Source of the DNA: a virus
IMG/VR virus record: IMGVR_UViG_3300043788_000207
Coordinates: 1 to 51,770 of that record
Direction: 5' to 3' (one strand)
Length of the DNA stretch: 51,770 bases
The position numbers were made by a program, and so were the translations under genes. The notes under the pieces were generated by a model. The model was not told the origin of the DNA. It searched no databases and saw only the letters and a list, made by a program, of their open reading frames with translations. This document shows, piece by piece, positions 1 to 51,575 of this stretch; positions within the stretch are counted from its first letter, which is position 1; every line of letters starts with the position of its first letter.

Positions 1-243
1 AGGGGAAAGCATCAGCAGGATCCACGGGATTTTCAGTCTCAGTTGCATGTGCCGCACGCTCCTGTCGTGGCGTTCACGGTTCCCGAGCACGTTCCAAACA
101 CTACGGGAGGGCCAACAGACTTCACGCACGCCACCTGGCCTGCCACCTGCGAGGAAGTCTCCGACTGAGGAATAACTTGAGCGCCGCCAAGGAGAAACGA
201 TCCGGCGTCAACCGCGTCCGATGTCTTCACGGCAACCGCGCCA
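1..243. repeat. Terminal direct repeat, left copy (contig overlap)
   Basis: Bases 1-243 match 51528-51770 throughout except position 116 (C) versus 51643 (T). This marks the contig as circular or terminally redundant. The left copy carries the 3' end of the 767-aa fibre gene and, at 1-48 on the minus strand, the start codon and first codons of the 488-aa fibre gene. It may be an assembler overlap rather than a physical terminal repeat. Confidence 0.95.
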
Positions 244-2342: not shown

Positions 2343-2480
2343 TCAGCCTCCTACTGCGGTATCGATTGCGCCGGGATGGTGATTGTCCCGGTGATGGGCG
2401 ATGTGCCGGTCTGGATCGTGATCGGGATTGTCTGTGCGGGGAATCGCGAGGCTGAGAACGGCTAAGATGATGCTTTTCAT
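2343..2480 (-). pseudogene. Short signal-peptide gene with apparent +1 frameshift
   Basis: An ATG at 2480 has AGGAG 5 nt upstream and lies 7 nt after the stop of the 1217-aa fibre gene. The first 14 codons encode a signal-peptide start (MKSIILAVLSLAIP). As sequenced, the frame then becomes His/Asp-rich and ends at TGA 2345-2343 (45 aa). If the run of four C (minus strand, near 2438) had three, the frame would continue as AQTIPITIQTG and finish SITIPAQ-like at TAG 2353-2351, giving a 42-aa protein with an AQ cleavage site like its neighbours. It is either a sequencing or assembly indel, a decayed gene, or a slippage-dependent gene. Confidence 0.5.
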
Positions 2481-2487
2481 GAAGCTC

Positions 2488-7176: not shown

Positions 7177-8469
7177 TCAGAAACTCTTCAAGAACTGATC
7201 CACTTTGGGATCGCCGGATGTTTTCGAAGGAATCTCGGATTGTCCCGGAAAATTCGGCTGTCCCCTTTTTCCTTGTTCGTACTGGCCGCGCAACGCTTCC
7301 ATCTTGCTCCCCATCAACCGGATATTGTTCTGGATGGCTCCGGAAAGTTGCGCAGGAGATTGCGAGGAGTTGATCGATGTGTTGATCGCATCGATTTCGG
7401 CGTCAGTCGCAGCTGCTCCTTTGAATGTCTTCGACAACTCGCCTGCGACCGCATTCCTGATAGTGGCGAAGTTGGTGGGAGCTGGATTACCCGTATTAGT
7501 CGCCCAAGAATTCGCAAGCCTGTTGAAGAGCTGGAGATCACCATTGTTCAACGCGTCTGCCGCTTGCTGAAGTTGTTTCAGGTGCTCCGTGGCGGTATTG
7601 AAATAGTTGATGGTTTGCGCGGGCTGCCCCGATGTGAATGCGCGAGTGAGAGCCTTGTCCGTCTGGAACGCGATCGACGCGGGGCTTCCGGCGCCTTGCC
7701 GAGCGGCGTCTCCGGCCCGCATGAAGGTGACCTTTTCCGGGTCGTTGGGGTCAATCACAGGCAGGTATCGATTCGCTCCGAATGCAACTGCGCGAGCAAT
7801 TCCTGGATCGATCTTCGTTTCTTTCGTCCAGGCGTTGTAAGCTCCGAGGTATGCTTGCTCCTCGGGAGTGAGTTGCTGCCCAAGCTGCTGCTTCTGCTTG
7901 ATCGCGATAGCCCTGTCATCGCGATTTACTTTGGGAGGATTCGCCGCGACGCGACCCGCCGTGGCCTGCTTGGCCTTCCACTCTTCGAAACTGCCCTTGT
8001 TCGGATCGGGGTCTGCGGCGTAATCCTGACGGGCTCTTTCATCTGCCGATCCCGCGGCGGGTTTGACAGTGAGACCGGCGAGCGCGTAAGTGAGCGAGTT
8101 CACATCCTGATCGTTGGCTTTATCGCCAAGGGTCTGCTTGGCTAGATTGCGAGCCCATCCGAGGCGAGACGATGCTTCATGTTCAGGGCTCTCGCCCGGA
8201 ACCGGCGTCTCTTCGAATCGTCCAGTCTGGGGATTGAGCGAGGTGACGGTGTAGCTGCCCTTGCTCGCGTTCCACTTTGGCTCGCCAATAGGAATGGGCT
8301 GGTTGCCGCGCGCGATCTTTTGCTGCTCGCCCTGGATCTGAACTTTCCTCAGGGCAGCGTCCTGCTGCGCTTCCTGATTCTGGATATCGCGCTGACGACG
8401 AATCTCCTGCGCCTCGGCCTGGGCAGGGGCGATCGGTCCAAGCACGGAAAGCGCATTCCAGAATCCCAT
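7177..8469 (-). CDS. Putative internal virion / ejection protein (430 aa)
   Basis: A helical, Ala/Gln-rich protein starting MGFWNALSVLGP. A predicted coiled coil covers about residues 18-55 (EAQEIRRQRDIQNQEAQQ). A conserved-looking helical domain covers residues 270-400, including TINYFNTATEHLKQLQQAA, FNRLANSWATNTG and IRLMGSKMEALRGQYEQ. The tail ends in DPKVDQFLKSF. It sits between two other candidate internal proteins with 1-bp gaps, so it is probably co-translated with them. It resembles large soil-podovirus structural proteins in style only; no catalytic motif is visible. Confidence 0.5.
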   Translation of the reverse strand: MGFWNALSVLGPIAPAQAEAQEIRRQRDIQNQEAQQDAALRKVQIQGEQQKIARGNQPIPIGEPKWNASKGSYTVTSLNPQTGRFEETPVPGESPEHEASSRLGWARNLAKQTLGDKANDQDVNSLTYALAGLTVKPAAGSADERARQDYAADPDPNKGSFEEWKAKQATAGRVAANPPKVNRDDRAIAIKQKQQLGQQLTPEEQAYLGAYNAWTKETKIDPGIARAVAFGANRYLPVIDPNDPEKVTFMRAGDAARQGAGSPASIAFQTDKALTRAFTSGQPAQTINYFNTATEHLKQLQQAADALNNGDLQLFNRLANSWATNTGNPAPTNFATIRNAVAGELSKTFKGAAATDAEIDAINTSINSSQSPAQLSGAIQNNIRLMGSKMEALRGQYEQGKRGQPNFPGQSEIPSKTSGDPKVDQFLKSF

Positions 8470-9556: not shown

Positions 9557-9942
9557 CAGGCAACCCCCTTGAACGGCATGACGCCGAGACAGCCGCAAAA
9601 GGGAACGAGCTTCCCATTGCGCCGCGCGATGATGCGCGCCAGCTTCGTCTCAGCCTTCTTGTTATCGGCGAGCATCGTCAACACTCCGACACACCCTCTC
9701 CTTTGGGCATTTTCGAGTATCCGGGGCACCGCTTCAAGAAACCAGTTCGACGATACGGAGGGCGGCTTGTTTGAAAGAACTCGCCAGAAAACCAGCCATC
9801 CGTGCGCGAAAGACGTGATGAATATGGCGAACGGTTTGTCGTCTTCGCACACAACCCAGGTCCACTCCGGCACCAGATAAGGCATTCCCGTCTCGCCCAG
9901 GTCGGGAAGCCGCTCGCCTTCGAACATGTTGCGCACAATCAC
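9556..9942 (-). CDS. Putative GNAT-like acyltransferase-fold protein (128 aa)
   Basis: The start GTG at 9942 overlaps the preceding stop as GTGA; a longer ATG start at 9987 is possible but would overlap by 49 bp. The pattern of strands and helices (WTWVVCEDDKPFAIFITS, then a long helix FLEAVPRILENAQRRG, then LTMLADNKKAETKLARIIARRNGKL) resembles small phage GNAT proteins found among podovirus structural genes. The acetyl-CoA loop is not clearly recognisable, so activity is uncertain. It contains one copy of the 16-base repeat at 9745-9760. Confidence 0.45.
   Translation of the reverse strand: MIVRNMFEGERLPDLGETGMPYLVPEWTWVVCEDDKPFAIFITSFAHGWLVFWRVLSNKPPSVSSNWFLEAVPRILENAQRRGCVGVLTMLADNKKAETKLARIIARRNGKLVPFCGCLGVMPFKGVA
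9745..9760 (-). promoter_or_regulatory. 16-mer repeat, copy A (inside a gene)
   Basis: On the minus strand it reads CTCCGTATCGTCGAAC. The identical 16 bases occur at 17063-17078 and 19377-19392. Here it encodes S-V-S-S-N in the GNAT-like gene. CTTGAA follows 6 nt downstream, at the same spacing as in copy B. Confidence 0.7.
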
Positions 9943-12212
9943 GCCATCACCCGCCGCGCTGTGGTTGACTTCGCAGTGACCGTCCAATCTACCGAATCAA
10001 TGATCACCTGACCTTGGCCGGAGATATCCAAATGCGCGATCTGGCCATTGAGCAAAATGCTGAACCGGCATTCAAACTTCTTGGAATTGACCGGCTGCGG
10101 AACGACATCAGGATAGAGCGTCCCTTGCATGCCGCCATCGAGATTGAGCGTCGCCACGATCGAGGCCGCCTGCGCCGCGGTTCCATATCCGCGCAAGACG
10201 ACCTGGTAATAGAACATCCGCTGCGAAGACCCTTCGCCGAATACATCAGGAGTGCGAAACCCCCACGCGATCGGCGTTCCGTTCGGTGACGAAGGGCTTC
10301 CATTCCAACTCGTGTCGCCGGCCTGCATCCTCTGAAGCGTGCCGTCGCCCTTGCCTGCGATCGTGAGCGGATTTCCATCTCCGGCTTTGGCGCGGTTCAA
10401 CGAATAAATCGGCCACGGCAGATCGATGATCGCCCATGCCTTCAGAATCAGGTCGTAGCAAAAGACGCGCGTCAAAGCGCCGCCATTGCCCTTAAGCGCC
10501 ATTGCACACATGTACATCGGCGGCTGCACGCACTGCGACGACTTGGCCAGATAAGCGTATTGCTCATCAACCGGGGTAATGTCGGAATCGACGTCGATGC
10601 CGCCGAACAGATATGGCCTGATCTCTTCTGAAATCAGCCGATCGCTCACCCCGTCGTAAACCGCAAACCCCAGGTGCGACCAGCGCACGATGCCGAATCC
10701 GGGGAGAAATTGGATCGAGCGCGCCGCTAGGCAGCCCATATCGGTTTGCGCCGGCTGAATCTCGAAGCTGCTCGATCCGAACACGCCAATGATCTGGTAA
10801 GTCAGGAACTCCTTGAATACGGCCATCGACCCGGTTGGGGAAATGCCCACTGCGGCGATCGTGAACGGCATAAGGCCCGTAATCTGGGTGCCGTCGTCCT
10901 TGCCGATGAAAGCCGTGTTGACGGGGTTCCATGACCCAGAGTTATTCGCGTCCGACATTTTGATGCAGGTCGGGCCGTCCAGCCCATCCGTAGTCGTCTG
11001 CGGTGAGGTATTGGCCAGCCACAGGGAGCCGGCATAAGACACCGCGTGTGCGGCGCCGCGCGGGGCGATCACCGTGGCTACAGCGCCCTGCGAGGTCCAG
11101 ATCACCGATCCGTCCGCAGTCTCCGTTCCCTTCGTGTTGTTGAATGTCGGAATCGTTGCGCCGCTGACGCCTCCCTGCGTGGCGGTGAAGAAGTAGCCTC
11201 CGTTCTGCATCTGGCTTCCCGTAATCCAGGAGACTGTCGCCTGCCAGGATGGATAAGCAGCCGTAAACGAGTTGGTCAGATTCGCCGGAGACGTGGCTGG
11301 AGTTGCTGGATTGAACGACTGAGGCGCGAGGCCATTACCCAGAACCAGAATCTCTTGCCCTGCAAAGGGAACGATCTCTGGAACGCTTTGCAAAACTCCT
11401 GCGACCCCGCCGTAGGGTGAGAAGCCGGGCACAAGAGCATTGCCCTGAAAGTTCGGATCGCCAGGCACGATCACGCAGGGTTGGGGTGCGAAGGCCGGAT
11501 AATTGCCGCCACTGATCAGCGCCCAGAGAAGCGACGTTCCCGTGGAGCCGGCATCGACCGACCCCACGAACAGTTGCGCGTACTCGGTCGCGTTCGCCCA
11601 CGGCGCTGGGCCTGAAGGGGTCGGCAACAGGCCAGTGAAAGAAAATAACGTGGACCCGCCCGACGCCGTGCCTATAACGGCGGCGCTGAACGTCGATCCG
11701 CCGACTGGATTGGCGCTCAGCAGATAGATGTAATATTCAGCCGCGCCCGGAACTGCCGTCCAGGTGACCGACACTGACCCGAATGGCGATCCGGCGACGA
11801 CGCTGGCGTAACTGCTGCTCCCCGGAACGATGGCCGTCTGGTCCGCTCCTCCCATCGTTCCGACCGCAGTCACGCCGAACCAGTATGTTCCGGCTGGATT
11901 GGTTGACGACCCTGAAACGCTAGCCGCGACCCCTGTCACATTGGACAGAACCGGGCTGACGCGCTGCGACAACACCACATAAAATGGAAACTGGTTGACC
12001 GAATAGTCCAGAAACACATCGACCCAGAGCGGTAGAAGGTAGGTTGACACCGAGGGCTGGCCGATAAGGAATGAGCCGTCGCACACCTGTAGCGACCCAC
12101 GCTGGGTCAGGACAAGGTTCGACATGCGCGACAACGTGCCCGGCTGTTGACTGAGCACGCCCGTCGCGGCGTTGACGCCCTTGACGAACCTCTTTTGCGA
12201 TACCGTGCTCAT
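9939..12212 (-). CDS. Tail nozzle / stabilisation protein, beta-propeller type (757 aa)
   Basis: Start ATG 12212 overlaps the upstream stop as ATGA. A longer in-frame extension is Arg-rich, antisense-looking and rejected. Residues 1-75 suit a virion attachment region (KRFVKGVNAATGVLSQQPGTLSRMSNLVLTQRGSL). Residues 90-215 look like an Ig/Fn3-type beta domain. The C-terminal half shows WD-like strands such as AVFKEFLTYQIIGVFGSSSF, GIVRWSHLGFAVYDGVSDRLIS and WAIIDLPW, a pattern typical of the beta-propeller nozzle of short tails (T7 gp12 / P22 gp10 class). It follows the adaptor gene, the usual order. The family call rests on pattern and position. Confidence 0.55.
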   Translation of the reverse strand: MSTVSQKRFVKGVNAATGVLSQQPGTLSRMSNLVLTQRGSLQVCDGSFLIGQPSVSTYLLPLWVDVFLDYSVNQFPFYVVLSQRVSPVLSNVTGVAASVSGSSTNPAGTYWFGVTAVGTMGGADQTAIVPGSSSYASVVAGSPFGSVSVTWTAVPGAAEYYIYLLSANPVGGSTFSAAVIGTASGGSTLFSFTGLLPTPSGPAPWANATEYAQLFVGSVDAGSTGTSLLWALISGGNYPAFAPQPCVIVPGDPNFQGNALVPGFSPYGGVAGVLQSVPEIVPFAGQEILVLGNGLAPQSFNPATPATSPANLTNSFTAAYPSWQATVSWITGSQMQNGGYFFTATQGGVSGATIPTFNNTKGTETADGSVIWTSQGAVATVIAPRGAAHAVSYAGSLWLANTSPQTTTDGLDGPTCIKMSDANNSGSWNPVNTAFIGKDDGTQITGLMPFTIAAVGISPTGSMAVFKEFLTYQIIGVFGSSSFEIQPAQTDMGCLAARSIQFLPGFGIVRWSHLGFAVYDGVSDRLISEEIRPYLFGGIDVDSDITPVDEQYAYLAKSSQCVQPPMYMCAMALKGNGGALTRVFCYDLILKAWAIIDLPWPIYSLNRAKAGDGNPLTIAGKGDGTLQRMQAGDTSWNGSPSSPNGTPIAWGFRTPDVFGEGSSQRMFYYQVVLRGYGTAAQAASIVATLNLDGGMQGTLYPDVVPQPVNSKKFECRFSILLNGQIAHLDISGQGQVIIDSVDWTVTAKSTTARRVMA

Positions 12213-13480
12213 GGGAGAATGATCCCGCCGAAGTATCCACCCGCGCCGGAGACGACTTCGACGCCGGCTGTACCGCCAGCCTGAACTCGGCGCGGCCCCA
12301 TGACCTGACGATTGCCCTTGATCCCCTGGCACTTTGTCTCGAAACTCTTCATCAACTTGTCGTGGTTGTCGATATCCTGCTCGGCCTTCTTGAACCGCGC
12401 GGTGAGATAGTCCTGCACCGCATCGATCCATGCCGGAGGCAGCGCGAGCGTCACTGCCGATTGTCCGACCGTGTAATGCTGCGGCGTGCGCAATCCTGAA
12501 ACATAGGCGTTGACTTCCATAACGCTGGCTCCGTTCGGCCATGCCTGCGCCATTGTTCCGCCCATGGCGCGCTGCACCATCGTGAGCGAGTTCGAGACGT
12601 TGCCGGAGTAATAGACCAGCTCGCATGCAGAGGGATCGGCGGGATATGGACCGATCAGAGCGAGCCCGAATCCCAGCACCCAGCCGCTCGAGCCGGGAGT
12701 ATAAGGAATAGTGGTCGCGTTCGCCGCCAGAGCGCCGTTCAGCGTTCCATTGCCCGACGTGCGGTCAGGCTGCGGCCAAAACTCTGCGAGTTGGACCTGC
12801 GAATCCTGGTTCAATACGACCGTACCCGAGAGGCCCTGCACGTTGCTGTGGCGGAACACGTCGAACTTGTTGCCCATCGCCACCGGGTAGCCGTCGAAGA
12901 ACTGATTGTTGAGCTTACGCCAATTGCCGATGAGCTGATACTGCGCCTGGCTTGCTGTGGTAGGCACGCCGGTGATGTCCCTGATGCCCTCGGTGAGCGC
13001 CGTCGCGGCGTCCAGGCCCTCATTGATCCAGCGATAGATGCCCGCGGCCGAAAGCGCCGTTCCGTCCGTATCGGGAAGCCACGCGGACGAGCGCTGCGGC
13101 GGATAACCGACAACGAGCCCCGAACTCAGGGTGAAGCTGATGCTGAACGCCCCAATTCCGCTGGGGGGAGTGTATAGAAAAAAGCGATCCTCCAGACCCG
13201 CGCCGATAGGCGACAGATAGACCTTTAGGGCGGTGGCCGCGAATGAGCAGTTTCCGGTGATGGTGTAGGTTCCGGTCAGGCTCCCATTCGTGATCGACAC
13301 TTCAGACGATGGCGCGGATTCGCCCCACGGCGTCAGTTGCGTGACCTTGAACCAGTAATTCAGAGATGCTGCGGGCGAGCAGGCGGCGACGACATTGGCG
13401 GGCGCAGGAAGATTCTGGCATGGATCGGCGGCTGCTTCCCGCAAAGCCTGAATCAGATCGCCAACCAGCGAAGTCTGCAT
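12209..13480 (-). CDS. Head-to-tail adaptor-like protein (423 aa)
   Basis: The N-terminus (MQTSLVGDLIQALREAAADP) starts a helical portion. Residues 35-125 form an Ig/Fn3-like beta insertion (NYWFKVTQLTPWGESAPSS). A helical adaptor-like region follows (GIYRWINEGLDAATALTEG, then a WRKL segment). The C-terminus has a long helix (AWIDAVQDYLTARFKKAEQDIDNHDKL) like the adaptor/connector proteins placed between portal and nozzle. The order capsid - decoration - adaptor - nozzle supports the call. GAGGG lies 4 nt from the ATG. The beta insertion is unusual for an adaptor. Confidence 0.45.
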   Translation of the reverse strand: MQTSLVGDLIQALREAAADPCQNLPAPANVVAACSPAASLNYWFKVTQLTPWGESAPSSEVSITNGSLTGTYTITGNCSFAATALKVYLSPIGAGLEDRFFLYTPPSGIGAFSISFTLSSGLVVGYPPQRSSAWLPDTDGTALSAAGIYRWINEGLDAATALTEGIRDITGVPTTASQAQYQLIGNWRKLNNQFFDGYPVAMGNKFDVFRHSNVQGLSGTVVLNQDSQVQLAEFWPQPDRTSGNGTLNGALAANATTIPYTPGSSGWVLGFGLALIGPYPADPSACELVYYSGNVSNSLTMVQRAMGGTMAQAWPNGASVMEVNAYVSGLRTPQHYTVGQSAVTLALPPAWIDAVQDYLTARFKKAEQDIDNHDKLMKSFETKCQGIKGNRQVMGPRRVQAGGTAGVEVVSGAGGYFGGIILP

Positions 13481-14020: not shown

Positions 14021-14032
14021 GTTCTCCCTTTC

Positions 14033-15019
14033 CTATGTGATGGCGGTGATCGTCACGTTCATGCGCGGGCTGATGCACGACAGATTCCATGTCAGATACA
14101 TGCAGCTCACCAGAACGCGCTGGTTCGAAGGCTTCAGGAACGGATCGACGTTGAAGTAATCGGCCTCGTGGAAGACGGGGAAGATGTACTTCGAGTTCAT
14201 GAATTCCGCCTGGTTGGCCGTCGCGAAGTAATCGGCCACCACAATCGCGTTGTTGAACAGGAAGTGATTACGGAAGCCGACCTGTAAGGCTTCATCGTCC
14301 TGCATCCCCTGCCCGAACCGGATCAGCGAGGTGAAGTTGCCCTTGAACGCGGCATAAGACGTCCGGTTCATCACCAGCAGATCGGGCTCATCGTAGCCCC
14401 AGGTCACGGACTGGTATGCGGACTCGGCCACTGTCGTCGAAAGCGCCGTCGATCCGCCACCGACCGAGGTTCCCGGCAGCCACCACGCATTCGAGGCTGT
14501 CGCGCGGTTGATGCCGGCAATGGTATTGGTGGTGGATTGGACCCAGGAGATGATATCGTCCACGTCCAGCGACGTGTTCTGCGGGCTGGTGTGCCACAGA
14601 GCGCGGGACAGCTTCTGAAGGAACGATCCCGAGGCCGTCTGAAACTTGGCCTTGATGATATCGAGGTTGCCCTGGCCGCCGCGATTCAGAATGATGTCCG
14701 TAATCGGAATCACGATGGGCTGGCGGTACGGCTTCCACTGTTGGTTGGCGGGTTGAACCGAATCGACCACGGAAGTGTCGAGCAATTGGTCGCCATAGTA
14801 GGCGCCGCCCGGCAACTCTTCCTGATAGATCTCAGGAAAGATCAGTTCGCCCGCTCCAAATCTCTTTCCCTCGCGCGTCAGAGCCCAGAAGACAGGAGAC
14901 GGCTTGAACACGTTGTCGCCCAAGACCGGCACAATGTACTTTTGGGAAATCGCATTGACGGTATTGGAAAGCTGAACTGGCGGCGATGCAAGTCCAAGTC
15001 CAACTACGCTGTTTGCCAT
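14033..15019 (-). CDS. Major capsid protein, HK97-fold type (328 aa)
   Basis: Length and style fit a short-tailed-phage capsid protein. The N-arm is followed by FWALTREGKRFGAGELIFPEI (beta-type E-loop), then a spine helix. Central helices include GNLDIIKAKFQTASGSFLQKLSRALW. An A-domain-like segment, WGYDEPDLLVMNRTSYAAFKG, precedes FGQGMQDDEALQVGFRNHFLF, and the tail is VSCMYLTWNLSCISPRMNVT. The scaffold-type gene upstream and decoration-type gene downstream support the call. GAGGA lies about 9 nt before the ATG. No insertion or truncation is visible. Confidence 0.8.
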   Translation of the reverse strand: MANSVVGLGLASPPVQLSNTVNAISQKYIVPVLGDNVFKPSPVFWALTREGKRFGAGELIFPEIYQEELPGGAYYGDQLLDTSVVDSVQPANQQWKPYRQPIVIPITDIILNRGGQGNLDIIKAKFQTASGSFLQKLSRALWHTSPQNTSLDVDDIISWVQSTTNTIAGINRATASNAWWLPGTSVGGGSTALSTTVAESAYQSVTWGYDEPDLLVMNRTSYAAFKGNFTSLIRFGQGMQDDEALQVGFRNHFLFNNAIVVADYFATANQAEFMNSKYIFPVFHEADYFNVDPFLKPSNQRVLVSCMYLTWNLSCISPRMNVTITAIT

Positions 15020-17078: not shown

Positions 17079-17288
17079 CTAGAGAATGGTGCGGATGAAC
17101 GTGCGCCTGTTGTGATAGCCGCGATTCACGCGGTACACCGGAAATCCGAATGCGGCCAGCGTTCCGTCATCTATCCAGCGCTGCACCATGCGCGGCGAGC
17201 GGCCCATCATGCGCGCGAACTCCTGCACCGTGAGCCAGTGATAAGGCTGGCGCATGTCGGATCGTCGCTCTTCCTGCACGATCATCAT
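17079..17288 (-). CDS. Small helix-turn-helix DNA-binding protein (69 aa)
   Basis: Residues 17-50 read as a winged-helix/MerR-excisionase type HTH: HWLTVQEFARMMGRSPRMVQ, then RWIDDGTLAAFGFPVYRV, and ends in RTFIRTIL. This is the helix-turn-helix_17 style used by excisionases and small regulators. Start ATG 17288 overlaps the portal stop (ATGA); ATG at residue 12 is an alternative. A DNA-binding regulator located between portal and scaffold is unusual. It sits directly upstream of repeat copy B and may bind it; that link is speculation. Confidence 0.75.
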   Translation of the reverse strand: MMIVQEERRSDMRQPYHWLTVQEFARMMGRSPRMVQRWIDDGTLAAFGFPVYRVNRGYHNRRTFIRTIL

Positions 17289-18997
17289 TTCTTCGCGCCT
17301 TTGACTCGAGCCAGAGCCGCCAGCTCGAGCTGCTCCTTCTGCTCCTTGGCGATCTCCTCGGCGCCCGGATACCCTAGGGTCGAGAGGCCGCGCTCAGTCG
17401 AAACAATGCCGGTCTTCATCAGGTCCGGCGTCATGCGGCGAACCACAGCGTCGGACAGCGGACGGATGCTGGCTTCATCGAGGAGCACGTCGTACTCATC
17501 AGGCCGGATGACGCCCTCCCACTCGGCCATTTCGATTCCGGTGGCGCCGCGGAAGGGCATGTTCTGGCGACGCTTGTATCGGCCCATAGTGTAGAAGAAG
17601 AACTCGCCCACCATCTGCACCGTGTCGGTCAACATGCGTCCAGCCAATTGCAAAAGCCCAGACGACTGAAGCACCGAAGAATCAAATAGATCGGTGGATA
17701 CGTTGCCGGCTCCGGGGTTTCCCTGGCGCGCTTCGGTGAAGCCCAGAACCTGGTTTTGCAAATTCAATAGCTCTTTGGGCGCCGTCAGCGCGCCACCGCT
17801 CAAAGCATTCGGCGTCACGCACTGTGGAACGCGTGATCCGTTGTTGATCATCTGTACCTCGCCGGCCAGGCCGCCAAAGGAATCGGTGTCGATATTGGTG
17901 TTCTGATCGATAAACCACACGCCGTTATTGATGCGGATGGCGTTCTCGAACACCTGCGTGTAGAACCGCTGCGCCAGCCGCTGCATATCGACGGTCATGC
18001 GCGTGACCGGAATCCCCCAGGCGCCGAACAGGGGCGGCAGCACCCACAGCGGGAACAATGGGAAACGCGGCGCCATGATGTCGGTGCGCTTGGCGTAGGG
18101 CGAATCGTCATCGTGCAGGATCACGCCTTCGCATTCGACCAGCCATCGCCCGTTGGGATATTTCAGGATCGCCTCGGGCTCGATCAGGTTAGCTTCGGGG
18201 ACGTCCTTCTTTTCGACGAGCTCGCGCGTGTAGTCCTTGCAGAACACATGCCGTACCAGCACGCGGCTATCGGAGACGCCGCGCTTTTGCGGCTGCGCTC
18301 CGGGCGCGCCGGGAGTTGACTGCATCGGTCCAGGCGGCATCTCGATTCCATAGCCCGATTCGCCGGAGAATGGATCCACGTTGCCCGATGTCCTGCGCGC
18401 CTTGACCGCCTTCGACGTGTACGGCCACTTGAGCCGCACGTCTTCGAGATTCATCCACGTGCCCCAGCCCGAATAGGACGGGTCCCAGGTGTAATCTGCG
18501 GTCGGGTCGAAAAACACATAGCGCGGATCGATCGACTTGGCCCACATGCCGCCACGCCCATTGCCGAGATCAGGATCGAAGCCCGACACGATCCAGCCGG
18601 ACCCGCAGTAGCGCGCGGTGAGTCCGGCCATGAGGAAATGCTGATTAAGCTTGGCGTTGCACCATTCGGCCTGCAGCGCTTTTTCGCGCTCTTTGTCGCG
18701 ATCAGATTTGGAGAAGATGTAGATCTGGGGATTCAGATTGGAGATTTGATTCGCTTCCTCCAGCATGATGCGCTGGAGCATCGGAATCGATACGGCGGGC
18801 CGGAAGCTCGGCGTGGGCGTGGCGGCGTCCTGCATCCCGTAGAGGTCTTCCGCCGCTTTCATGAAGTTCTCGCCCAGCTGCTTCTTGCGAGCCGAATCTG
18901 AAGCTTCTACCCACTGCTGGATGTGCTTAGAGCGCGGGTCGGAGTACTCGTCCGGGTCGGACTTTTTCTTTGTGCCGATCAGAACGATGTTGCCCAA
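17285..18997 (-). CDS. Portal protein (570 aa)
   Basis: Forms the dodecameric DNA channel at the capsid vertex. Size and pattern fit short-tailed-phage portals: an N-terminal helical domain (QQWVEASDSARKKQLGENFM, SIPMLQRIMLEEANQISNLN), a beta-rich clip/wing region (WIVSGFDPDLGNGRGGMWAK, IDPRYVFFDPTADYTWDPSY), then a crown/stem portion with MTVDMQRLAQRFYTQVFENA. The start is TTG 18997, directly after the TAA of the 48-aa gene and 6 nt from AGGAGG. It lies downstream of large terminase and upstream of scaffold and capsid, the standard packaging order. Confidence 0.88.
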   Translation of the reverse strand: MGNIVLIGTKKKSDPDEYSDPRSKHIQQWVEASDSARKKQLGENFMKAAEDLYGMQDAATPTPSFRPAVSIPMLQRIMLEEANQISNLNPQIYIFSKSDRDKEREKALQAEWCNAKLNQHFLMAGLTARYCGSGWIVSGFDPDLGNGRGGMWAKSIDPRYVFFDPTADYTWDPSYSGWGTWMNLEDVRLKWPYTSKAVKARRTSGNVDPFSGESGYGIEMPPGPMQSTPGAPGAQPQKRGVSDSRVLVRHVFCKDYTRELVEKKDVPEANLIEPEAILKYPNGRWLVECEGVILHDDDSPYAKRTDIMAPRFPLFPLWVLPPLFGAWGIPVTRMTVDMQRLAQRFYTQVFENAIRINNGVWFIDQNTNIDTDSFGGLAGEVQMINNGSRVPQCVTPNALSGGALTAPKELLNLQNQVLGFTEARQGNPGAGNVSTDLFDSSVLQSSGLLQLAGRMLTDTVQMVGEFFFYTMGRYKRRQNMPFRGATGIEMAEWEGVIRPDEYDVLLDEASIRPLSDAVVRRMTPDLMKTGIVSTERGLSTLGYPGAEEIAKEQKEQLELAALARVKGAKK

Positions 18998-20219: not shown

Positions 20220-20503
20220 ACTTCCTCGGTCCAGAACTTCTCAAAAACAGTGGAAAGTTCGTCTACCAACTTTCCCTCGGGAGTCCGCTTGAACAGCACA
20301 TGTCCCGCATCGAAGTTGAACTGCTTTACGTCGGGCCATTCGAGGATATCCATGATGCGAGTTCGGGCTAATCTCGCCATCATGAGATTCTGGCGTCGCC
20401 GTTCGGCGCGCTCCATAACTATCTCCTCTAGCCACTTATGCTCGTCGTCTTCATCCAGGCGCGCGCCGATAAATCGAAGATAAGTCAAAGCTCTCATTCT
20501 CAT
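20216..20503 (-). CDS. Unknown helical protein downstream of terminase (95 aa)
   Basis: Start ATG 20503 overlaps the terminase stop (ATGA); a longer extension would lie inside the terminase gene. Contains charged helices (ARLDEDDEHKWLEEIVMERA, ERRRQNLMMARLARTRIMDI) and ends VDELSTVFEKFWTEEV. No family recognised. Confidence 0.65.
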   Translation of the reverse strand: MRMRALTYLRFIGARLDEDDEHKWLEEIVMERAERRRQNLMMARLARTRIMDILEWPDVKQFNFDAGHVLFKRTPEGKLVDELSTVFEKFWTEEV

Positions 20504-22308
20504 ATCCACATCAACCGATCCGGCTGCCCCTTCTTCTTGTTGTGCCGTTCGAGCATTCTCAGGTGATCGTTTCCAGTTTGCATCAACCCGCCGAACGCCG
20601 TCACAAATCCGTCCTTGGTCCACTCCGGCATCTTGCCGCCCTGCTGTGGAATGTTAGCCGATTCCATCTCCTCTTTCGTCATCAGCGTGTTCTTGGACGC
20701 GCGCACAGAGCATACATGAGGATGATTCTGCTCTTTAGCGATCCATCCGAGGAAAGATGCCATCAAAACATCGTCCTTGCCGACGCGAACAGTCCAGCGC
20801 CAGTTCATCTCCATCTTCGCGGCCTTCATCTGATTGACCAAGATGCGATCCTTGGGAACGACTTCTTTGCGATGAAGCGCAGTCCGAAAAAGCGAGAACA
20901 TCATGCGGCGGTAGCGGTCCGACGTCTCGAATCCGTACTGCATGCCTTGCTTGGAACGGTCTGCGCGATCGTCGCGCCCCTTCCACAGATATTGCGATGG
21001 ATAATACAGACGGTCGCGCAGCTCGCGCATCGTGACATAGCCCAAGTTATTCAGTTCAACGTTCAGCATGGCGTTGTTGAAGTAATAACCGAGCGCTGCG
21101 CCCGTCTCGGCCAGTAACTCAGGAGATACGCGAGCCATGTAGCGCGCGGCGTAGTGGCCTGTCTCGGCGTTCCAGACGACAATCGCAGCGTAGTCGCCCG
21201 GCGCCAAGCTCGCTTCCTCACCGCGCGCCGTGTCAAGGCCGGCGAAGTAGTGATGCTTGGGCTGTGGGCTCTCCCATACTTCAAGCGGGCCTTCCCAGTC
21301 CTCTTCCAAATGCGACGACTTGCCGCCGGGATCGAGAACGCACCGGCCTTTGAATGGAGCCTTGATGATGGAGTTTTCGGCGAACTGCATCTCTTCCACC
21401 GTGAATGCCGGATCACCGGTAGCGACGAAAGCCTCCTCTGGAGTGCTCGGAAATTCTGCCCTCCAGCTTTCAATGATGCCTTCGCACTTAGTCGATAGCG
21501 TCTCGCGGAACCACGCGATGTGCTCCTTGCCGATCCTCACTTTTTTATTGGTGCGCCAGTGCTTGATGTCGTTCATCAGCCAGCGCTCGTACTCGTCCCG
21601 CGGCGCATCCTTGGCTAATGCCGGATCGAGCACGTAAGCCGGATCGTCCCACCACGGTAGAAAGATTGGAAGGAATTCGTTGTCGCCCGACACGGCGGCT
21701 TGCCAATACTCGTAGTATGCTTCGCCTGGTCCTTCCATACCGTTCGCAGTGGTCTCGATGAGGCAAATGTTATTGGGATCTATGGAGAGCGTATTCATTA
21801 GCGACGTAAACGCGCCTTCGTAGGGATAGAACGCCGCCTCGGTCAGATGAAGGCAGGATGACGTGAGCCCACGCTGCCCGTGCACGGTGGCCGCGGTGTG
21901 GTGCGTGAACGTCGAGTCCGGTCCGTCATCGTGCGGATAGGTAAGCGAGCGCTTGGTGGGCTTGGGAAACTGCGGGTAGATCGATTTGCAATCCTGCGCG
22001 AATCCGCGGGCCATCTCGAAGTTAGCCGCCGCCACCTCCCGATTCTGCGCGATGCAGCGGGCCAGAGCTCCGGCGTGCGCGATACAGTGCGCCTGACCTA
22101 TTGCCGTGGCGAGAGTGGACAATCCCACGCGGCGCGCCTTGAGGAAGATGCCGAACAGTCTCCGCTTACGGGCGAGATGTTCCTTCAATAGCTCGATAAC
22201 TTCCAATTGCTGCTGGCGCAGGCGAAATGGAATGGATGTGCCTTCGTCTCGATCGCGGATATTGAGACGGTCAAAGAACTTGACCACATGATCTAACTGG
22301 AGGGGCAC
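20500..22308 (-). CDS. terL: Terminase large subunit (602 aa)
   Basis: The ATP-driven packaging motor and headful/cut nuclease. The ATPase has a Walker A LKARRVGLST (residues 56-65), Walker B ending in catalytic Glu157 (CLHLTEAAF) and the coupling motif ETTANG (185-190). The RuvC-like nuclease shows the first Asp in FAGLDTARG (D359), an acidic residue in LNVELNNLG (E418) and the last Asp pair in KDDVLMASF (D512-513). Length is normal for the family. The start is GTG 22308, directly after the stop of the 57-aa gene. It is followed by frameshift and portal genes, the usual packaging cluster. Confidence 0.97.
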   Translation of the reverse strand: MPLQLDHVVKFFDRLNIRDRDEGTSIPFRLRQQQLEVIELLKEHLARKRRLFGIFLKARRVGLSTLATAIGQAHCIAHAGALARCIAQNREVAAANFEMARGFAQDCKSIYPQFPKPTKRSLTYPHDDGPDSTFTHHTAATVHGQRGLTSSCLHLTEAAFYPYEGAFTSLMNTLSIDPNNICLIETTANGMEGPGEAYYEYWQAAVSGDNEFLPIFLPWWDDPAYVLDPALAKDAPRDEYERWLMNDIKHWRTNKKVRIGKEHIAWFRETLSTKCEGIIESWRAEFPSTPEEAFVATGDPAFTVEEMQFAENSIIKAPFKGRCVLDPGGKSSHLEEDWEGPLEVWESPQPKHHYFAGLDTARGEEASLAPGDYAAIVVWNAETGHYAARYMARVSPELLAETGAALGYYFNNAMLNVELNNLGYVTMRELRDRLYYPSQYLWKGRDDRADRSKQGMQYGFETSDRYRRMMFSLFRTALHRKEVVPKDRILVNQMKAAKMEMNWRWTVRVGKDDVLMASFLGWIAKEQNHPHVCSVRASKNTLMTKEEMESANIPQQGGKMPEWTKDGFVTAFGGLMQTGNDHLRMLERHNKKKGQPDRLMWI

Positions 22309-41237: not shown

Positions 41238-41263
41238 TCGGCCCCACTGAGGAACAGGAGCGA

Positions 41264-46455: not shown

Positions 46456-46953
46456 CTAGCGAACTTCTGCGACCAGTTCTGGCTTGTCGCCCTTGGCGTC
46501 TTTACGAGCCCTCGCCAACTCTGGATCATTCAGCGGCGTGAGCAAGGGAGGGGCGTTCGTTGCCTGTTGCGCGTTGATGGCAGGCGCGGTCGGGTTCGCT
46601 GCGATAGCATACGGACCGACAACATTAGAAGCTGCACTCGTAGCCGGTGGCGTCGCCGAGTCCTGATACTGCATGAATTCACACACGGTGGTTCCCGCCG
46701 AACTTAGATCCACATACACAGACGACGCCTGACCGGCCGCATTCAATTGCTTGAAGTTGGTGCTGGTCGGGGCGTCGCACGTCGTGGCGCCGGACGCCAC
46801 AGTCTCCTTGAACGCGAACCATTTTGCCGCGGTGGCGGGCGGAGATTGTACGGTCATCGTCAAAGAGTGGACGGTAGGTGGAAGCTGCTGAGCGCCAGCG
46901 CATCCTGCCGTCATGGTCAAAGGAATCGCAAACAACATCGTTCTGAATCGCAT
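46456..46953 (-). CDS. Exported protein with signal peptide, possible lipoprotein (165 aa)
   Basis: Residues 1-22 (MRFRTMLFAIPLTMTAGCAG) form a Sec signal. A lipobox-like TAGC and an AGAQ site are both present. The mature part is a small beta domain (SLTMTVQSPPATAAKWFAFK, GQASSVYVDLSSAGTTVCEF), then Ala/Asn/Pro-rich. It lies immediately downstream of the 1051-aa fibre, with no gap. Could be a virion-associated lipoprotein or a superinfection-exclusion protein. Confidence 0.6.
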   Translation of the reverse strand: MRFRTMLFAIPLTMTAGCAGAQQLPPTVHSLTMTVQSPPATAAKWFAFKETVASGATTCDAPTSTNFKQLNAAGQASSVYVDLSSAGTTVCEFMQYQDSATPPATSAASNVVGPYAIAANPTAPAINAQQATNAPPLLTPLNDPELARARKDAKGDKPELVAEVR

Positions 46954-49900
46954 CTATGGTCCTCCTGTGAGAGTTGCTGTTCCTGTGATAGTGGGCATCC
47001 CTGTGATTGTAGGCGCGGTTGGGGTTACCGACGAGAAGAAAAGTCCTGCCTGCTGGGCCAGCCACGGGTCTGCCGCCTGAACCCAGGACAGAACCGTAGA
47101 CGTCGCGGAAGCCTGAACTTGATATTCAGAGAAGTAATTCTCGTTGGTCAGCGACGTAACGAAAGTGAACCCGCTCCCCGCGGTCGGAACCACAGCCGGA
47201 TAGTCCAGATTCGCCATCCCGCCGATCAACAATTCATTACTTTGTGCGGGCGCCGATGTTGCTCCTGCGGTCGGATTAGCTGTGGATCCAGTAGAGTTTC
47301 TCTGGAAGCCGCTGTCGGAGTTGAATGCTCCTGGACTCGAAGGCGTCCAGGACTGGCAGGCAATCCCATTGAACGTGCTGGGACCGCTGAGATTTACGGT
47401 CACCTGAATGGCTGTGTTCTGGGCGTTGGAGATGAAGTAAATCGCCGACAGAGAGTCAGTGCCTGCGTCGTAAGCGGTCTGCGCCGCAGCCGGAGCGTAA
47501 GTCCCATTAGCGTTGTCGGTAACCGAGGTGATCGTCACATTGGTCCCGAGGGTGATCTCGCATGTGATTCCGTCGCCGGAATTCGGCGTGAATCGAGAGG
47601 TTGTAAAGGTGGATGCCGTCGCCGATCCGCCGTTGAATATGCCGGTCGCATTCAGAACGATGTTGCGCTGGTTATAGGTGGCCGCGAGTACAGAGCTATT
47701 CAGGAATCCCGCCTGCGTCGCCAACATGCTCAACGTCTGATTAGCCGCGACCGATACTGAGCCGGTCGTGTAAGTCGAGCTTCCCGAACCGCATGTCCCT
47801 GCTGTTGGAGCGGTGGGCGATATACCATTAAGGGTATAGCATCCTTTTGATCCGCTGGGGATCGTCGGCGTGACGGCTAGAGGGAAACTGGAGGGGAGGT
47901 AATTATTGGGCGCCTGATTTGGACTGAGGGTTGGTGTGGCTAGTGTCGGGGTCGCAATTGTCCCCGTCCACGACACGATAGGGCTGTCGTTGTACCCCGA
48001 GCAGCCATGTACGTAGGAATAGAGAGTCGTTGAGCTGGTGAATGAAAACGTGTTGGTATTGACGGTTGGAGGGTTAGTTGTGCCCAGATAGACGTTCCCA
48101 TTGCATCCAGTGGTGTTTGTCGATGCGGTAACGGTAGTCGCCGGACCGCTATATGGAGAGGTTGGAGAAAATGTCGGAGAATTGGCTGTCGGCGTTCCCC
48201 CGGAGCACGTTGTGCCAAACGCACGCTGATAAGCTGGCTGCTGCGTCGATCCCTTTATGCTCAGGTCTGATCCCTGCTCAGGCCACCCGCACGATGCGCT
48301 CGAAATGAATGACGGCTCCGAAGAATAGTAGAGAGAATTGCCGTAACTTGAGGTGGCTCCCTCGCTGCCAGGCACGCCGTTGAACTGGTTCCAGTTCCCC
48401 TGCGTGATGATCGTCGCCACGGGAGTCGGCATCGGGCTCGGGCAATAGGATGTCGTCGCATTGGCGAGACTGTAGACTAGGGGATTGGCGATAGGCGCGG
48501 CTTCGTTGAAACTTGAGTAGGTTGCCGCGGTCCAATTAGGCCAGTAGCCGCCAGAAGTTAGAGCATTCGATCCAAGGATGTTATCGACGGCTGAATAGTA
48601 GATATTGCAGGGGTAGAGATCAACTGCTGCGAATCCATTATTGGGCGGAAATCCGCCCAGAGGATAGGCGAAAGCCGACAGGTTCCCAGCGGGCCAAGTC
48701 GTGTTGGTCTCGCCGCCCCACAGCCAATTGCGAAACAGCACGTGATGCGATGCCGATCCCGAGATATCATCCCCGACATAGTGCGAAATGATATTGCCTT
48801 CATAGAGATTGAACAGGGAATGCCCACCATGAACTGATCGGGTCGATCCGAGGTAAGAACCGTCATCGGTATACAGGTCGTCAACAAAGTTATAAAGCCA
48901 GGTTGTCCCCGAGTCGCCGCCTTGATTGATTAACCCGTGACGGCTGTGAAAGACGATATTGTTTTCTACCTTGTGGTCCGAATTGAACCACTGAAAATAG
49001 ATGCCGTATCCGGCCCCGGAAGCTCCAGACCGCTGATCGTGGAAGGCCGAATCCCTGATCTCCGCCGCATAGCTTCCGTCTGTTTCGACATGCGCTGACA
49101 AACTGTTAGAACCAGTGACATAGGTCTCGACGTTCTTGACCCAGCATTCCAAGCAAGCCTGAACGAGGAGAAGCCGGTTCGGTCCGGTGTCATGCTGCGA
49201 CCCGTCCACGCGAAGGTTCTCGAAGCCAACATGCGTCGCGCTCCATGTGATGATCGAGTACTTCGCTCCGGACGGCTCTGTGCACGTCCCTGAACCATTA
49301 GGGCAGGTCACGTTGACCGATGATGTGTAGAGGGGATAATAGAGCGGCTTCGAGATGTTCACCACGGACCCGGAGCCGCCAGAGCCGGAAACGATGCTCG
49401 TGACTTGAACGATCTGCGAGCGGATGTAGGCGCCATCATTGGCCCCGCACCAGGGACAAAACCCGTCTTGCCCGGTGTTCGACACCGTTGACGGATCGTC
49501 GTTACCGTAAACCAGCATCCACGTGCCGACAGAGACCGTGCCTGAGCCGATTGTGAGCTGCGTATCGCCCTTCTGGGGCGTGCCAGACAGAGAGAATGTC
49601 GAAGGCAGACTCCCGCTCCCGTAAAAAACTTGCGGGTTGAGCGTCGATGCGCCTCCGTTCCACTCGATATCGCCAGCCTGAAGTTGCCCACTGCTGCCGA
49701 TGACAAAGCGCGTCTCTCCCGATTGGCCAGTAGGAAGAAAAGGAGGACCGCCTTGAGTCTTTGCGCCGCGCAGGCAGGTATTCGACTTGAGATACACCGT
49801 GGAGTTGATGTAATAGTTTGTGCCGGCCGGAACCAATACGCACTGATTCGAACTGAGCGCGTTATCGCAAGCCTGAATCCCCGGTCCGTCGTCGGTCACG

Positions 49901-50109
49901 CCGTCGTCATGAAGCCCGGTGCACGCGACGCCGGTGTAATTCGGCAACGTCCCGCCGTTCCAGATGTCCGATCCGGTCTGCCATGGGATTTGACGGCAAT
50001 TGAGTGGGCATCCTGAGTTATTGTTGGGCAGGGAATAGGTGGCCTGAGCGCCGGCGGAGCCAACCGTGCTCAGAAGAACGGCGAAGAGCAATAAAACGAA
50101 GCGCTTCAT
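46954..50109 (-). CDS. Giant pectate-lyase-type fibre/depolymerase with signal peptide (1051 aa)
   Basis: Residues 1-22 (MKRFVLLLFAVLLSTVGSAG) are a Sec signal peptide. Residues 65-560 look like a pectate-lyase-superfamily beta-helix: HDDGVTDDGPGIQACDNALS, FENLRVDGSQHDTGPNRLLL, AEIRDSAFHDQRSGA and VENNIVFHSRHGLINQGGDS. Residues 690-810 form repeated Ig/chitobiase-type modules (TPTLSPNQAP, SGSKGCYTLNGISPT). The tail is Thr-rich. The first motif is typical of tailspike N-termini (DDGVTDD). It could bind or cleave capsular polysaccharide. It ends 1 bp from the next gene. Confidence 0.75.
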   Translation of the reverse strand: MKRFVLLLFAVLLSTVGSAGAQATYSLPNNNSGCPLNCRQIPWQTGSDIWNGGTLPNYTGVACTGLHDDGVTDDGPGIQACDNALSSNQCVLVPAGTNYYINSTVYLKSNTCLRGAKTQGGPPFLPTGQSGETRFVIGSSGQLQAGDIEWNGGASTLNPQVFYGSGSLPSTFSLSGTPQKGDTQLTIGSGTVSVGTWMLVYGNDDPSTVSNTGQDGFCPWCGANDGAYIRSQIVQVTSIVSGSGGSGSVVNISKPLYYPLYTSSVNVTCPNGSGTCTEPSGAKYSIITWSATHVGFENLRVDGSQHDTGPNRLLLVQACLECWVKNVETYVTGSNSLSAHVETDGSYAAEIRDSAFHDQRSGASGAGYGIYFQWFNSDHKVENNIVFHSRHGLINQGGDSGTTWLYNFVDDLYTDDGSYLGSTRSVHGGHSLFNLYEGNIISHYVGDDISGSASHHVLFRNWLWGGETNTTWPAGNLSAFAYPLGGFPPNNGFAAVDLYPCNIYYSAVDNILGSNALTSGGYWPNWTAATYSSFNEAAPIANPLVYSLANATTSYCPSPMPTPVATIITQGNWNQFNGVPGSEGATSSYGNSLYYSSEPSFISSASCGWPEQGSDLSIKGSTQQPAYQRAFGTTCSGGTPTANSPTFSPTSPYSGPATTVTASTNTTGCNGNVYLGTTNPPTVNTNTFSFTSSTTLYSYVHGCSGYNDSPIVSWTGTIATPTLATPTLSPNQAPNNYLPSSFPLAVTPTIPSGSKGCYTLNGISPTAPTAGTCGSGSSTYTTGSVSVAANQTLSMLATQAGFLNSSVLAATYNQRNIVLNATGIFNGGSATASTFTTSRFTPNSGDGITCEITLGTNVTITSVTDNANGTYAPAAAQTAYDAGTDSLSAIYFISNAQNTAIQVTVNLSGPSTFNGIACQSWTPSSPGAFNSDSGFQRNSTGSTANPTAGATSAPAQSNELLIGGMANLDYPAVVPTAGSGFTFVTSLTNENYFSEYQVQASATSTVLSWVQAADPWLAQQAGLFFSSVTPTAPTITGMPTITGTATLTGGP

Positions 50110-51575
50110 TATCGCCCCTTAAACGCAATGGCCACGCTAACGAATGCGCCCGCGCTCTGCACGTAAGTGGGTGCGGCAGTCGATGTGGAGTTCAAGGCGG
50201 AAATAAAGTTCTGATTTATGTCGAACTGATACGGACCCAGAAGCCCCAGAGAAGACGTTGTCAGCGTTCCCGCGCCGGACACCAACTGCACAAGGAGATC
50301 GCTAGACCCGGTAAGTCCCGTAAACGACGATCCTGTGCAGTTCGTGCAGGAGCTTGAGCCGCCATTGGACGAAGCATACTGATCGAGTGCGATAGTTCCG
50401 CAGAACGCGATGCACTTCCATTCATCGACTGCGGGAAAGCAGGACGCGCAGGATGCCGAAAGAGTCAGGCTAACCGCTGTAGAACCCGCCGGCGCCCCGA
50501 TGATGTAAGCCATATCCGCGCCACGCGATGACCCAGATACGTAATTATTGCATCCGCTCGCCGCGCACAAGGTTACAGCGCTGCCTCCAACGGTTCCCGA
50601 AGAAATGGTGATGTTCGAGGCCGTCAGGTTAATAACCGATGGAACAACGACGCTGCCCGCAGAGGTTGGATAAATCGTCAGAGTGCATGTGGTCCCGGAA
50701 CATGATCCATCCTGACTTTGCACATACATCCAGATAGGATTCTGTCCCAAACCACACAGACTGCCTCCAATATTGGCCGCGGTGCATAGATCCGTCAAAG
50801 ACCCGGTTCCCGCATGGATGGCTGGGTTACCGCTCCCGTCGGTCGTGTATGTGGCTGCCCCAGAAGCGCCGCCTGGGTCTGATCCGGTGGTAGCGGTGAA
50901 TGCTCCGGAGTGGCCCGTTCCGTCGCTTACGGCCAGCTTTTGATGCACCGTGGTTTGCCCTGAAGTGATCTCGTCGATATGAGACTGAGCGCCGGTTGTG
51001 GTTGCGCCTGTTCCCAGGCCGACCACTTGAGACGCCTGGCCTGACACCGTTCCACTACCGGAAGGAGCCGCCCACACGCCATCGCCGCGCCAAAAGGTTG
51101 TGTTGCTTGCGCCCGATCCAGTGTTGAGGTTCGAAACAGGAAGATTGCCTGTGACGCCTCCCGCTCCGCTCGACGCGAGATTAATGGCGCTCAGGAAATT
51201 GGCGGGAATCAAGTTGCTCGCGCTATAGGTCGCGCCCCATGCATTCGACCCGCCATAGTTAGGAATCCCCGCGCCGCCAGACGGCCAAACCATCCCAGAT
51301 CCCGCGTATTGCGGAATATTCAGGGTGCAGCTATTGAGCGTTGCCGCGCCGCTCGACCCTGTGGTCGTCAAGGTAATGGCGCACTGGTATTGCGGGATGT
51401 TGAGAATCGTTCCCGTCAGCGATGCGGCGCCGCTGGTTCCCGTAGTGGTCAGAGTTATTGATGTGGACGATTGGCCGATTGATACGCCTGAGCCGCTAAC
51501 TGACACCCCCTGCGCAACCGCCACGGCAGGGGAAAGCATCAGCAGGATCCACGGGATTTTCAGTCTCAGTTGCAT
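50109..51575 (-). CDS. Tail fibre with signal peptide (488 aa)
   Basis: Start ATG 51575 with AGGAG 10 nt upstream; an in-frame extension is rejected. Residues 1-22 (MQLRLKIPWILLMLSPAVAV) are a Sec signal peptide ending AVAQ. The body is Ser/Thr/Gly-rich beta repeats (SITLTTTGTSGAASLTGTIL, then ITLTTTGSSGAATLNSCTLN, a near-duplicate), a phage-fibre-type linker (IPANFLSAINLASSGAGGVT, TTFWRGDGVWAAPSG), and a C-terminal knob ending FVSVAIAFKGR. Its start overlaps the 767-aa gene across the contig join. Confidence 0.72.
   Translation of the reverse strand: MQLRLKIPWILLMLSPAVAVAQGVSVSGSGVSIGQSSTSITLTTTGTSGAASLTGTILNIPQYQCAITLTTTGSSGAATLNSCTLNIPQYAGSGMVWPSGGAGIPNYGGSNAWGATYSASNLIPANFLSAINLASSGAGGVTGNLPVSNLNTGSGASNTTFWRGDGVWAAPSGSGTVSGQASQVVGLGTGATTTGAQSHIDEITSGQTTVHQKLAVSDGTGHSGAFTATTGSDPGGASGAATYTTDGSGNPAIHAGTGSLTDLCTAANIGGSLCGLGQNPIWMYVQSQDGSCSGTTCTLTIYPTSAGSVVVPSVINLTASNITISSGTVGGSAVTLCAASGCNNYVSGSSRGADMAYIIGAPAGSTAVSLTLSASCASCFPAVDEWKCIAFCGTIALDQYASSNGGSSSCTNCTGSSFTGLTGSSDLLVQLVSGAGTLTTSSLGLLGPYQFDINQNFISALNSTSTAAPTYVQSAGAFVSVAIAFKGR

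What the first reader, a model, noticed from the sequence alone, without database searches (positions are those of the whole stretch)
46456..51575. Run of fibre genes with Sec signal peptides (continues at 39-6141)
Six consecutive same-strand reading frames across the contig join start with Sec-type signal peptides: 165 aa, 1051 aa, 488 aa, 767 aa, a frameshifted mini-gene and 1217 aa. Most end in an A-Q cleavage pattern. Tail fibres normally assemble in the cytoplasm, so export is unexpected. Possibilities: fibres made as secreted depolymerases that loosen biofilm or envelope, fibres added to virions outside the cell, uncleaved hydrophobic N-termini used as virion anchors, or domains captured from host secreted proteins. 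This could be an undescribed export-coupled receptor-binding system.
Basis: partly seen in the sequence, partly recalled or inferred. Interest (0 to 1): 0.82.

Follow-up and report, generated by a model that had tools for sequence, protein, structure and literature searches.

The report
Exported, disulfide-rich phage tail fibres
A soil phage, and many phages like it including two already grown in the laboratory, makes its tail fibres with the secretion tag bacteria use to send proteins out of the cytoplasm, which breaks the usual rule that tail fibres are made and attached inside the cell.

Summary
Five long minus-strand genes at the contig join (1217, 767, 488, 1051 and 165 aa), plus a frameshifted mini-gene, begin with Sec-type signal peptides (SPs). 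The run sits just downstream of the tail/ejection genes of a podovirus-like genome. It is not a one-off. About 20 relatives with the same capsid protein carry 1-5 SP-headed fibres at the same place. In them the SP sequence diverges while the mature protein starts at a fixed A|Q point. The SP fibres are cysteine-rich (2.0% against 0.5% in the other genes) and nearly always have an even cysteine number (50/55, later 39/39 and 14/16). SP-less fibres sharing a motif are cysteine-poor with chance parity (15/31). Two cysteines in the N-terminal domain come and go together. This points to export, disulfide formation and a cleaved SP, not an uncleaved virion anchor. The proteins are modular tail fibres or spikes: one relative reads SP, N-domain, beta-helix, K1-lyase C-domain. 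Cultivated Acidobacteriota podoviruses Tunturi 1 and 2 have the same arrangement, while Tunturi 3, on the same host strain, has SP-less, cysteine-poor fibres. Most likely the fibres fold in the periplasm and join virions at or after lysis. That last step is inferred. I found no published description.

The parts
2488..6141 (-). Fibre A, 1217 aa; signal peptide residues 1-16 (MKKLLLLLLFPIMLFA|Q); 24 mature cysteines
   Evidence: Translation; SP; cysteines; start overlaps the upstream stop
3424..3843 (-). Fibre A residues 767-906, degenerate repeats (NNTAGGSQALN...), shared at 50% with the SP fibre of relative G009
   Evidence: blastp
2545..2721 (-). Fibre A residues 1141-1199, K1-lyase_C-like tailspike C-domain (17.7 bits, below the curated cut-off of 27); ends NPLCVSYLIIN, 82% identical to a relative's SP fibre
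   Evidence: Pfam; blastp; A4 scan
2343..2480 (-). Mini-gene: SP-like start MKSIILAVLSLAIP, frame change at a CCCC run, continues AQTIPITIQ... to a stop just before the ribosome site of B
39..2342 (-). Fibre B, 767 aa, TTG start; SP residues 1-18 (...SYA|Q); 16 mature cysteines
1923..2288 (-). N-domain of B, first 122 mature residues, conserved immediately after the SP in 16 other contigs
50109..51575 (-). Fibre C, 488 aa; SP residues 1-21 (...VAVA|Q); 14 mature cysteines
51051..51158 (-). Fibre C residues 140-175, widespread fibre motif (GGVTGNLPVSNLNTGSGASNTTFWRGDGVWA), 75% identical to the SP-less fibre of Bradyrhizobium phage ppBjS10J-1
46954..50109 (-). Fibre D, 1051 aa; SP residues 1-21 (...SAGA|Q); 22 mature cysteines
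46456..46953 (-). Small exported protein E, 165 aa; SP residues 1-21 (CAGA|Q) or possibly lipoprotein type; 2 mature cysteines
1..243 (.). Terminal redundancy: repeats 51528-51770 with one mismatch, so the genome map is circular (about 51.5 kb) and the fibre run crosses the join
6138..7175 (-). 345-aa gene directly upstream of the run, ejection-protein position, no SP, no cysteine
7177..8469 (-). 430-aa structural gene, conserved in relatives, no SP, no cysteine
9939..12626 (-). Conserved virion structural protein (phrog_3287); relatives align from residue 140, so the true start is probably downstream of the annotated ORF start
14033..15019 (-). Major capsid protein (phrog_9953), used to find relatives
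17285..18997 (-). Portal protein (phrog_156)
20500..22308 (-). Terminase large subunit (phrog_2)

Best explanation
The run encodes the phage's modular tail fibres and spikes, made as Sec precursors. Late in infection each chain is exported by the host Sec system, the signal peptide is cut at A|Q, and the mature chain folds outside the cytoplasm with intramolecular disulfides. The fibres are then met by virions that leave the cytoplasm at lysis, and dock through their conserved N-domain. So the receptor-binding apparatus is added outside the cytoplasm. Strongly supported by sequence: Sec-type SPs, cleavable form, cysteine pairing, tail-fibre modules and position. Inferred: actual cleavage, periplasmic storage, and docking to virions at or after lysis.
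For: 1) All five long genes carry SPs in the correct frame with constrained starts. 2) Conserved: about 20 relatives carry 1-5 SP-headed fibres right after the same ejection genes. 3) The B N-domain occurs in 16 contigs, all 16 with an SP; SP lengths vary (18-35 aa), median SP identity 39% against 71% for the adjoining mature domain, lower in all 120 pairs, with the mature start fixed at A|QIP in nearly all. 4) Cysteines: 2.04 per 100 aa against 0.51 in SP-less genes of the same phages; even number in 50/55 SP fibres (P about 1e-10) with no such bias for any other residue, and 31/58 in SP-less genes; even in 39/39 SP fibres from a second set of contigs; SP-less fibres sharing a motif have 0.27 per 100 aa and 15/31 even, against 1.25 and 14/16 for SP ones. 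N-domain positions 39 and 68 are both Cys or neither, while Cys82 and Cys119 are nearly always both present. 5) Fibre identity: SP + N-domain + Beta_helix + K1-lyase_C in one relative, both Pfam models above cut-off; K1-lyase_C above cut-off in another; fibre motif shared with SP-less fibres; the N-domain model resembles viral fibre-type proteins, weakly. 6) The same N-domain starts SP-less genes in G018, G019 and G030. 7) Cultivated podoviruses Tunturi 1 and 2: gp12, gp13, gp14 (tail spike/pectin lyase) and gp17 (virion structural protein) have SPs and even mature cysteines (20, 10, 20, 32 or 34).
Against: No proteomics: cleavage and presence in virions are unproven; 'virion structural protein' in Tunturi is an annotation. 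SPs were called by my own rule, not SignalP. SP-less fibres in relative G030 are also cysteine-rich (16 and 19), so cysteines do not track the SP perfectly. Some family members and Tunturi 3, on the same host strain, use SP-less fibres, so export is not obligatory. Disulfides could in principle form after lysis. The structure model of D failed. Host of the window phage unknown.
Confidence: 0.6

Rival explanations
1. Secreted, non-virion enzymes or adhesins: the exported spikes are released into the surroundings before or at lysis and degrade capsule or matrix for progeny, or bind envelope, without ever joining the particle.
For: Export evidence is the same; several SP proteins carry enzyme-like or secreted-protein domains (GDSL-like, CHB_HEX_C_1, beta-helix); up to five per genome is many for one virion.
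Against: They sit in the tail operon, no other hypervariable receptor-binder candidate is seen in the window (the other tail genes are conserved), and the N-domain and fibre motif are shared with SP-less fibres.
Confidence: 0.25
2. Uncleaved hydrophobic N-termini that anchor fibres in the virion; no export.
For: A hydrophobic helix could seat in a tail component (inference only).
Against: AXA-type site with Q at +1 in most (60 of 96); SP diverges while the mature start is fixed; even and covarying cysteines; SP-less homologues start directly at the N-domain.
Confidence: 0.05
3. Lysogenic-conversion surface proteins: displayed on the infected or lysogenic cell to change its surface or exclude other phages.
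For: Known phage-encoded envelope proteins such as lambda Lom and Bor lie in or near tail regions and carry SPs (own knowledge).
Against: No integrase found among the window genes scanned; MCP and N-domain searches found no relative in GTDB genome contigs; size, modularity and tailspike C-domains fit fibres.
Confidence: 0.06
4. Accidental remnants: SPs hitch-hiked from captured host secreted genes and have no function.
For: Some C-terminal modules are common in secreted bacterial proteins.
Against: SPs are kept in nearly all relatives despite strong divergence, and in contigs that lack this capsid protein.
Confidence: 0.03

Closest known systems
Tail fibres and tailspikes of Caudoviricetes (K1-lyase_C, beta-helix spikes; prophage tail fibre N-terminal domains)
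   Same: Position after tail/ejection genes, conserved N-domain with variable C-terminal modules, beta-helix and K1-lyase_C in relatives, shared fibre motif
   Different: Carry cleavable-type Sec signal peptides and paired cysteines; the usual ones have neither
Tunturiibacter phages Tunturi 1 and 2 (PP887698, PP885685; PMC11924767)
   Same: Isolated podoviruses with a run of SP-headed, even-cysteine fibre genes (gp12, gp13, gp14, gp17), host Acidobacteriota
   Different: Fibres share no detectable sequence with the window's; the paper does not mention signal peptides or virion proteomics
Sec-exported endolysins (Oenococcus phage fOg44 Lys44; reviewed in PMC6116005)
   Same: Tailed-phage protein using the host Sec system during the lytic cycle
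   Different: Lysis enzymes, not fibres
Filamentous phage pIII (own knowledge)
   Same: Receptor-binding virion protein made with a Sec signal peptide and disulfides
   Different: Membrane-anchored, filamentous extruded virion, unrelated sequence and architecture

Membership tests
Caudoviricetes tail fibre/spike | Encoded in the late tail module, downstream of tail/ejection genes | tested here: met
Caudoviricetes tail fibre/spike | Conserved N-terminal domain joined to unrelated, variable C-terminal regions | tested here: met
   N-domain profile found at the start of fibres across relatives; shown in the window for B only
Caudoviricetes tail fibre/spike | Known spike domains (beta-helix, K1-lyase_C) | tested here: inconclusive
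   Above cut-off in relatives L101 and L090; window A only 17.7 bits against 27; B-E no Pfam hit
Caudoviricetes tail fibre/spike | Present in the virion | not testable with these tools
   No proteomics available; PMC11924767 reports none
Caudoviricetes tail fibre/spike | No signal peptide (usual, not defining) | tested here: not met
Sec type-I exported proteins | n-, h- and c-regions with the -3/-1 rule | tested here: met
   own rule; SignalP not available
Sec type-I exported proteins | Features of folding outside the cytoplasm (paired cysteines) | tested here: met
Sec type-I exported proteins | Actual cleavage and export | not testable with these tools
   Needs expression or N-terminal MS
Sec-exported endolysin | Peptidoglycan hydrolase domain | tested here: not met
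   No such domain in A-E; the lysis-type Tlde1/YkuD gene is separate at 44659-45024

The most novel reading that the evidence does not exclude
Many soil phages, across several unrelated lineages, complete their virions outside the cytoplasm: receptor-binding spikes are secreted, oxidised and matured in the periplasm and attached to particles only as these leave the cell. This allows disulfide-stabilised, harsh-environment fibres that cytoplasmic assembly cannot make.
Probability: 0.5. Interest if true: 0.92.

Novelty: new variant of a known kind. Interest (0 to 1): 0.8.

Why it matters
Textbook assembly has tail fibres folded and attached in the reducing cytoplasm. A conserved, widespread set of Sec-exported, disulfide-rich fibres would add a compartment to tailed-phage morphogenesis, explain how spikes survive in soil, and change annotation, since SP-headed fibres are easily mistaken for host secreted proteins or auxiliary genes. 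It is directly testable now: Tunturi 1/2 (SP fibres) and Tunturi 3 (SP-less fibres) grow on the same host strain.

Tried and rejected
Chance: rejected by the ORF survey, random-segment control and conservation. Mis-called starts: rejected by stop/start overlaps and ribosome sites. Host genes in a mis-binned contig: rejected, the run lies in a phage structural operon that recurs. Direct searches with A and D in viral contigs and DNA or protein searches in GenBank phages found nothing; relatives came from the capsid protein instead. Host search: MCP and N-domain scans of GTDB contigs found no relative; TnpB gave no host signal. A single-sequence model of D failed (pLDDT 32). PDB fold search of the N-domain gave no significant match. 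One search used a query whose second half I composed rather than read from a locus; its negative result is not used. The '0 of 110' line is circular (that set was chosen for lacking SPs) and is not used.
Full report
WHAT IS THERE. The window is an IMG/VR virus record of 51,770 bases. Its ends overlap by 243 nt with one mismatch, so the map is circular. On the minus strand: terminase (20500-22308), portal (17285-18997), major capsid protein (14033-15019), a conserved virion structural protein (9939-12626), then 430-aa and 345-aa genes without cysteine in the position of ejection proteins. No tape-measure or tail-tube gene was recognised among the proteins scanned, and distant capsid relatives are Myxococcus Mx8/Mx9 and Bradyrhizobium ppBjS10J-1, so it is podovirus-like. 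Then comes the run A, mini-gene, B, C, D, E, all co-directional and tightly packed, followed by a membrane protein and lysis-type genes.

IS IT REAL. Every long gene of the run starts with a canonical Sec SP: MKKLLLLLLFPIMLFA|Q, MKRILSSIVFLVSAVSYA|Q, MQLRLKIPWILLMLSPAVAVA|Q, MKRFVLLLFAVLLSTVGSAGA|Q, MRFRTMLFAIPLTMTAGCAGA|Q. Among 274 ORFs of 60 aa or more only nine pass the rule at any start, and five are these.

CONSERVATION. A capsid-protein scan gave 71 loci. I read 26 regions downstream of the capsid gene. About 20 distinct phages carry 1-5 SP-headed fibre genes right after the ejection genes; some have further SP fibres between the capsid and the tail genes (G012, G014, G015). The B N-domain was found in 16 contigs, all with SPs of different sequence and length but with the mature protein beginning at the same A|QIP point in nearly all. 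Fifteen of these 16 contigs are also among the capsid-protein hits.

CYSTEINES AS A COMPARTMENT TEST. Proteins folded in an oxidising compartment tend to hold even numbers of cysteines. SP fibres: 2.04 Cys per 100 aa, even in 50/55. SP-less genes of the same phages: 0.51 per 100 aa, even in 31/58 of those with any. No other amino acid shows the parity bias in SP fibres. A second, C-domain-based set gave 39/39 even. A third set, drawn by a mid-fibre motif, gave SP fibres 14/16 even with 1.25 Cys per 100 aa, and SP-less fibres 15/31 even with 0.27. Pooled SP fibres: 86/91 even at 90% redundancy reduction. In the N-domain, positions 39 and 68 are both Cys or neither, as expected of one disulfide gained or lost as a unit. 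The window's five proteins have 24, 16, 14, 22 and 2 mature cysteines, all even.

FIBRE IDENTITY. Relative L101:15314-17473 reads SP, N-domain, Beta_helix (39.3 bits), K1-lyase_C (55.9 bits), both above the Pfam cut-offs; L090:3207-6314 also passes for K1-lyase_C. Window A ends in a related domain, below cut-off but 82% identical to the C-terminus of another SP fibre. Window C carries a fibre motif that is 75% identical in an SP-less fibre of ppBjS10J-1. Foldseek with the N-domain model (pLDDT 80) gave viral fibre-type proteins as best matches, weakly. The N-domain opens SP-less genes in G018, G019 (226 aa, no cysteine) and G030 (16 Cys in the 900-aa gene). So the N-domain works in fibres with and without SP and is best read as the docking domain.

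BREADTH. Forty-three contigs holding the A-type C-domain were checked for the window's capsid family; only 3 have it, yet most carry SP fibres, in runs. Some have an HK97-type portal or other terminases. So SP fibres occur in several phage lineages.

CULTIVATED EXAMPLES. A domain from one such SP fibre hit Tunturiibacter phages Tunturi 1 and 2. Their gp12, gp13, gp14 and gp17 all have SPs and even mature cysteine counts, while portal, capsid and ejection-type proteins have no SP. Tunturi 3, on the same host strain X5P2, and Tunturi 4 have SP-less, cysteine-poor fibres. So export is a property of the phage, not forced by the host. The paper on these isolates (PMC11924767) mentions neither signal peptides nor virion proteomics results.

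MECHANISM. Shown by sequence: SPs, conservation, cysteine pairing, fibre modules. Inferred: Sec export, cleavage, periplasmic folding, docking to virions at or after lysis. Rivals are given above; the strongest is secreted enzymes that never join the virion. The window phage's host is unknown; Acidobacteriota is suggested only by analogy with Tunturi.

NOVELTY. Tail fibres are known; Sec-exported endolysins are known (PMC6116005). None of ten full-text searches turned up a description of Sec-exported tail fibres; subscription journals and bioRxiv preprints are not held. I rate it a new variant of a known kind.

Noticed in passing
window 41027-42379: IS605-type TnpB (OrfB_IS605 plus Cas12f1-like TNB domain) inserted in the phage genome; best plasmid-borne relatives only about 39% identical.
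   Followed up: partly
relative G030, between the SP-less fibres at about 13874-14161 of the region downstream of its capsid gene (L068 and L103): A small glutaredoxin-like ORF (MADIRMYVQKGCPHCEAALQF...) lies between two cysteine-rich, SP-less fibres: possibly another way of handling fibre cysteines.
   Followed up: no
window 9939-12626: The first ~139 residues of the 895-aa ORF are not shared with most relatives, so the true start is probably internal.
   Followed up: no
L168:3367-12578: A longer run of up to six SP-headed genes in a contig with only a distant capsid match.
   Followed up: partly
window 44659-45024: Lysis-region gene with a Tlde1 / YkuD-like L,D-transpeptidase domain, an unusual lysis-module enzyme.
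   Followed up: no
L270:18687-19474 (Tunturi 1 gp15, gp16): Two small proteins sit between the SP spikes and gp17; gp16 passes the SP rule, gp15 has a hydrophobic N-terminus only: possible accessory factors, like E in the window.
   Followed up: no
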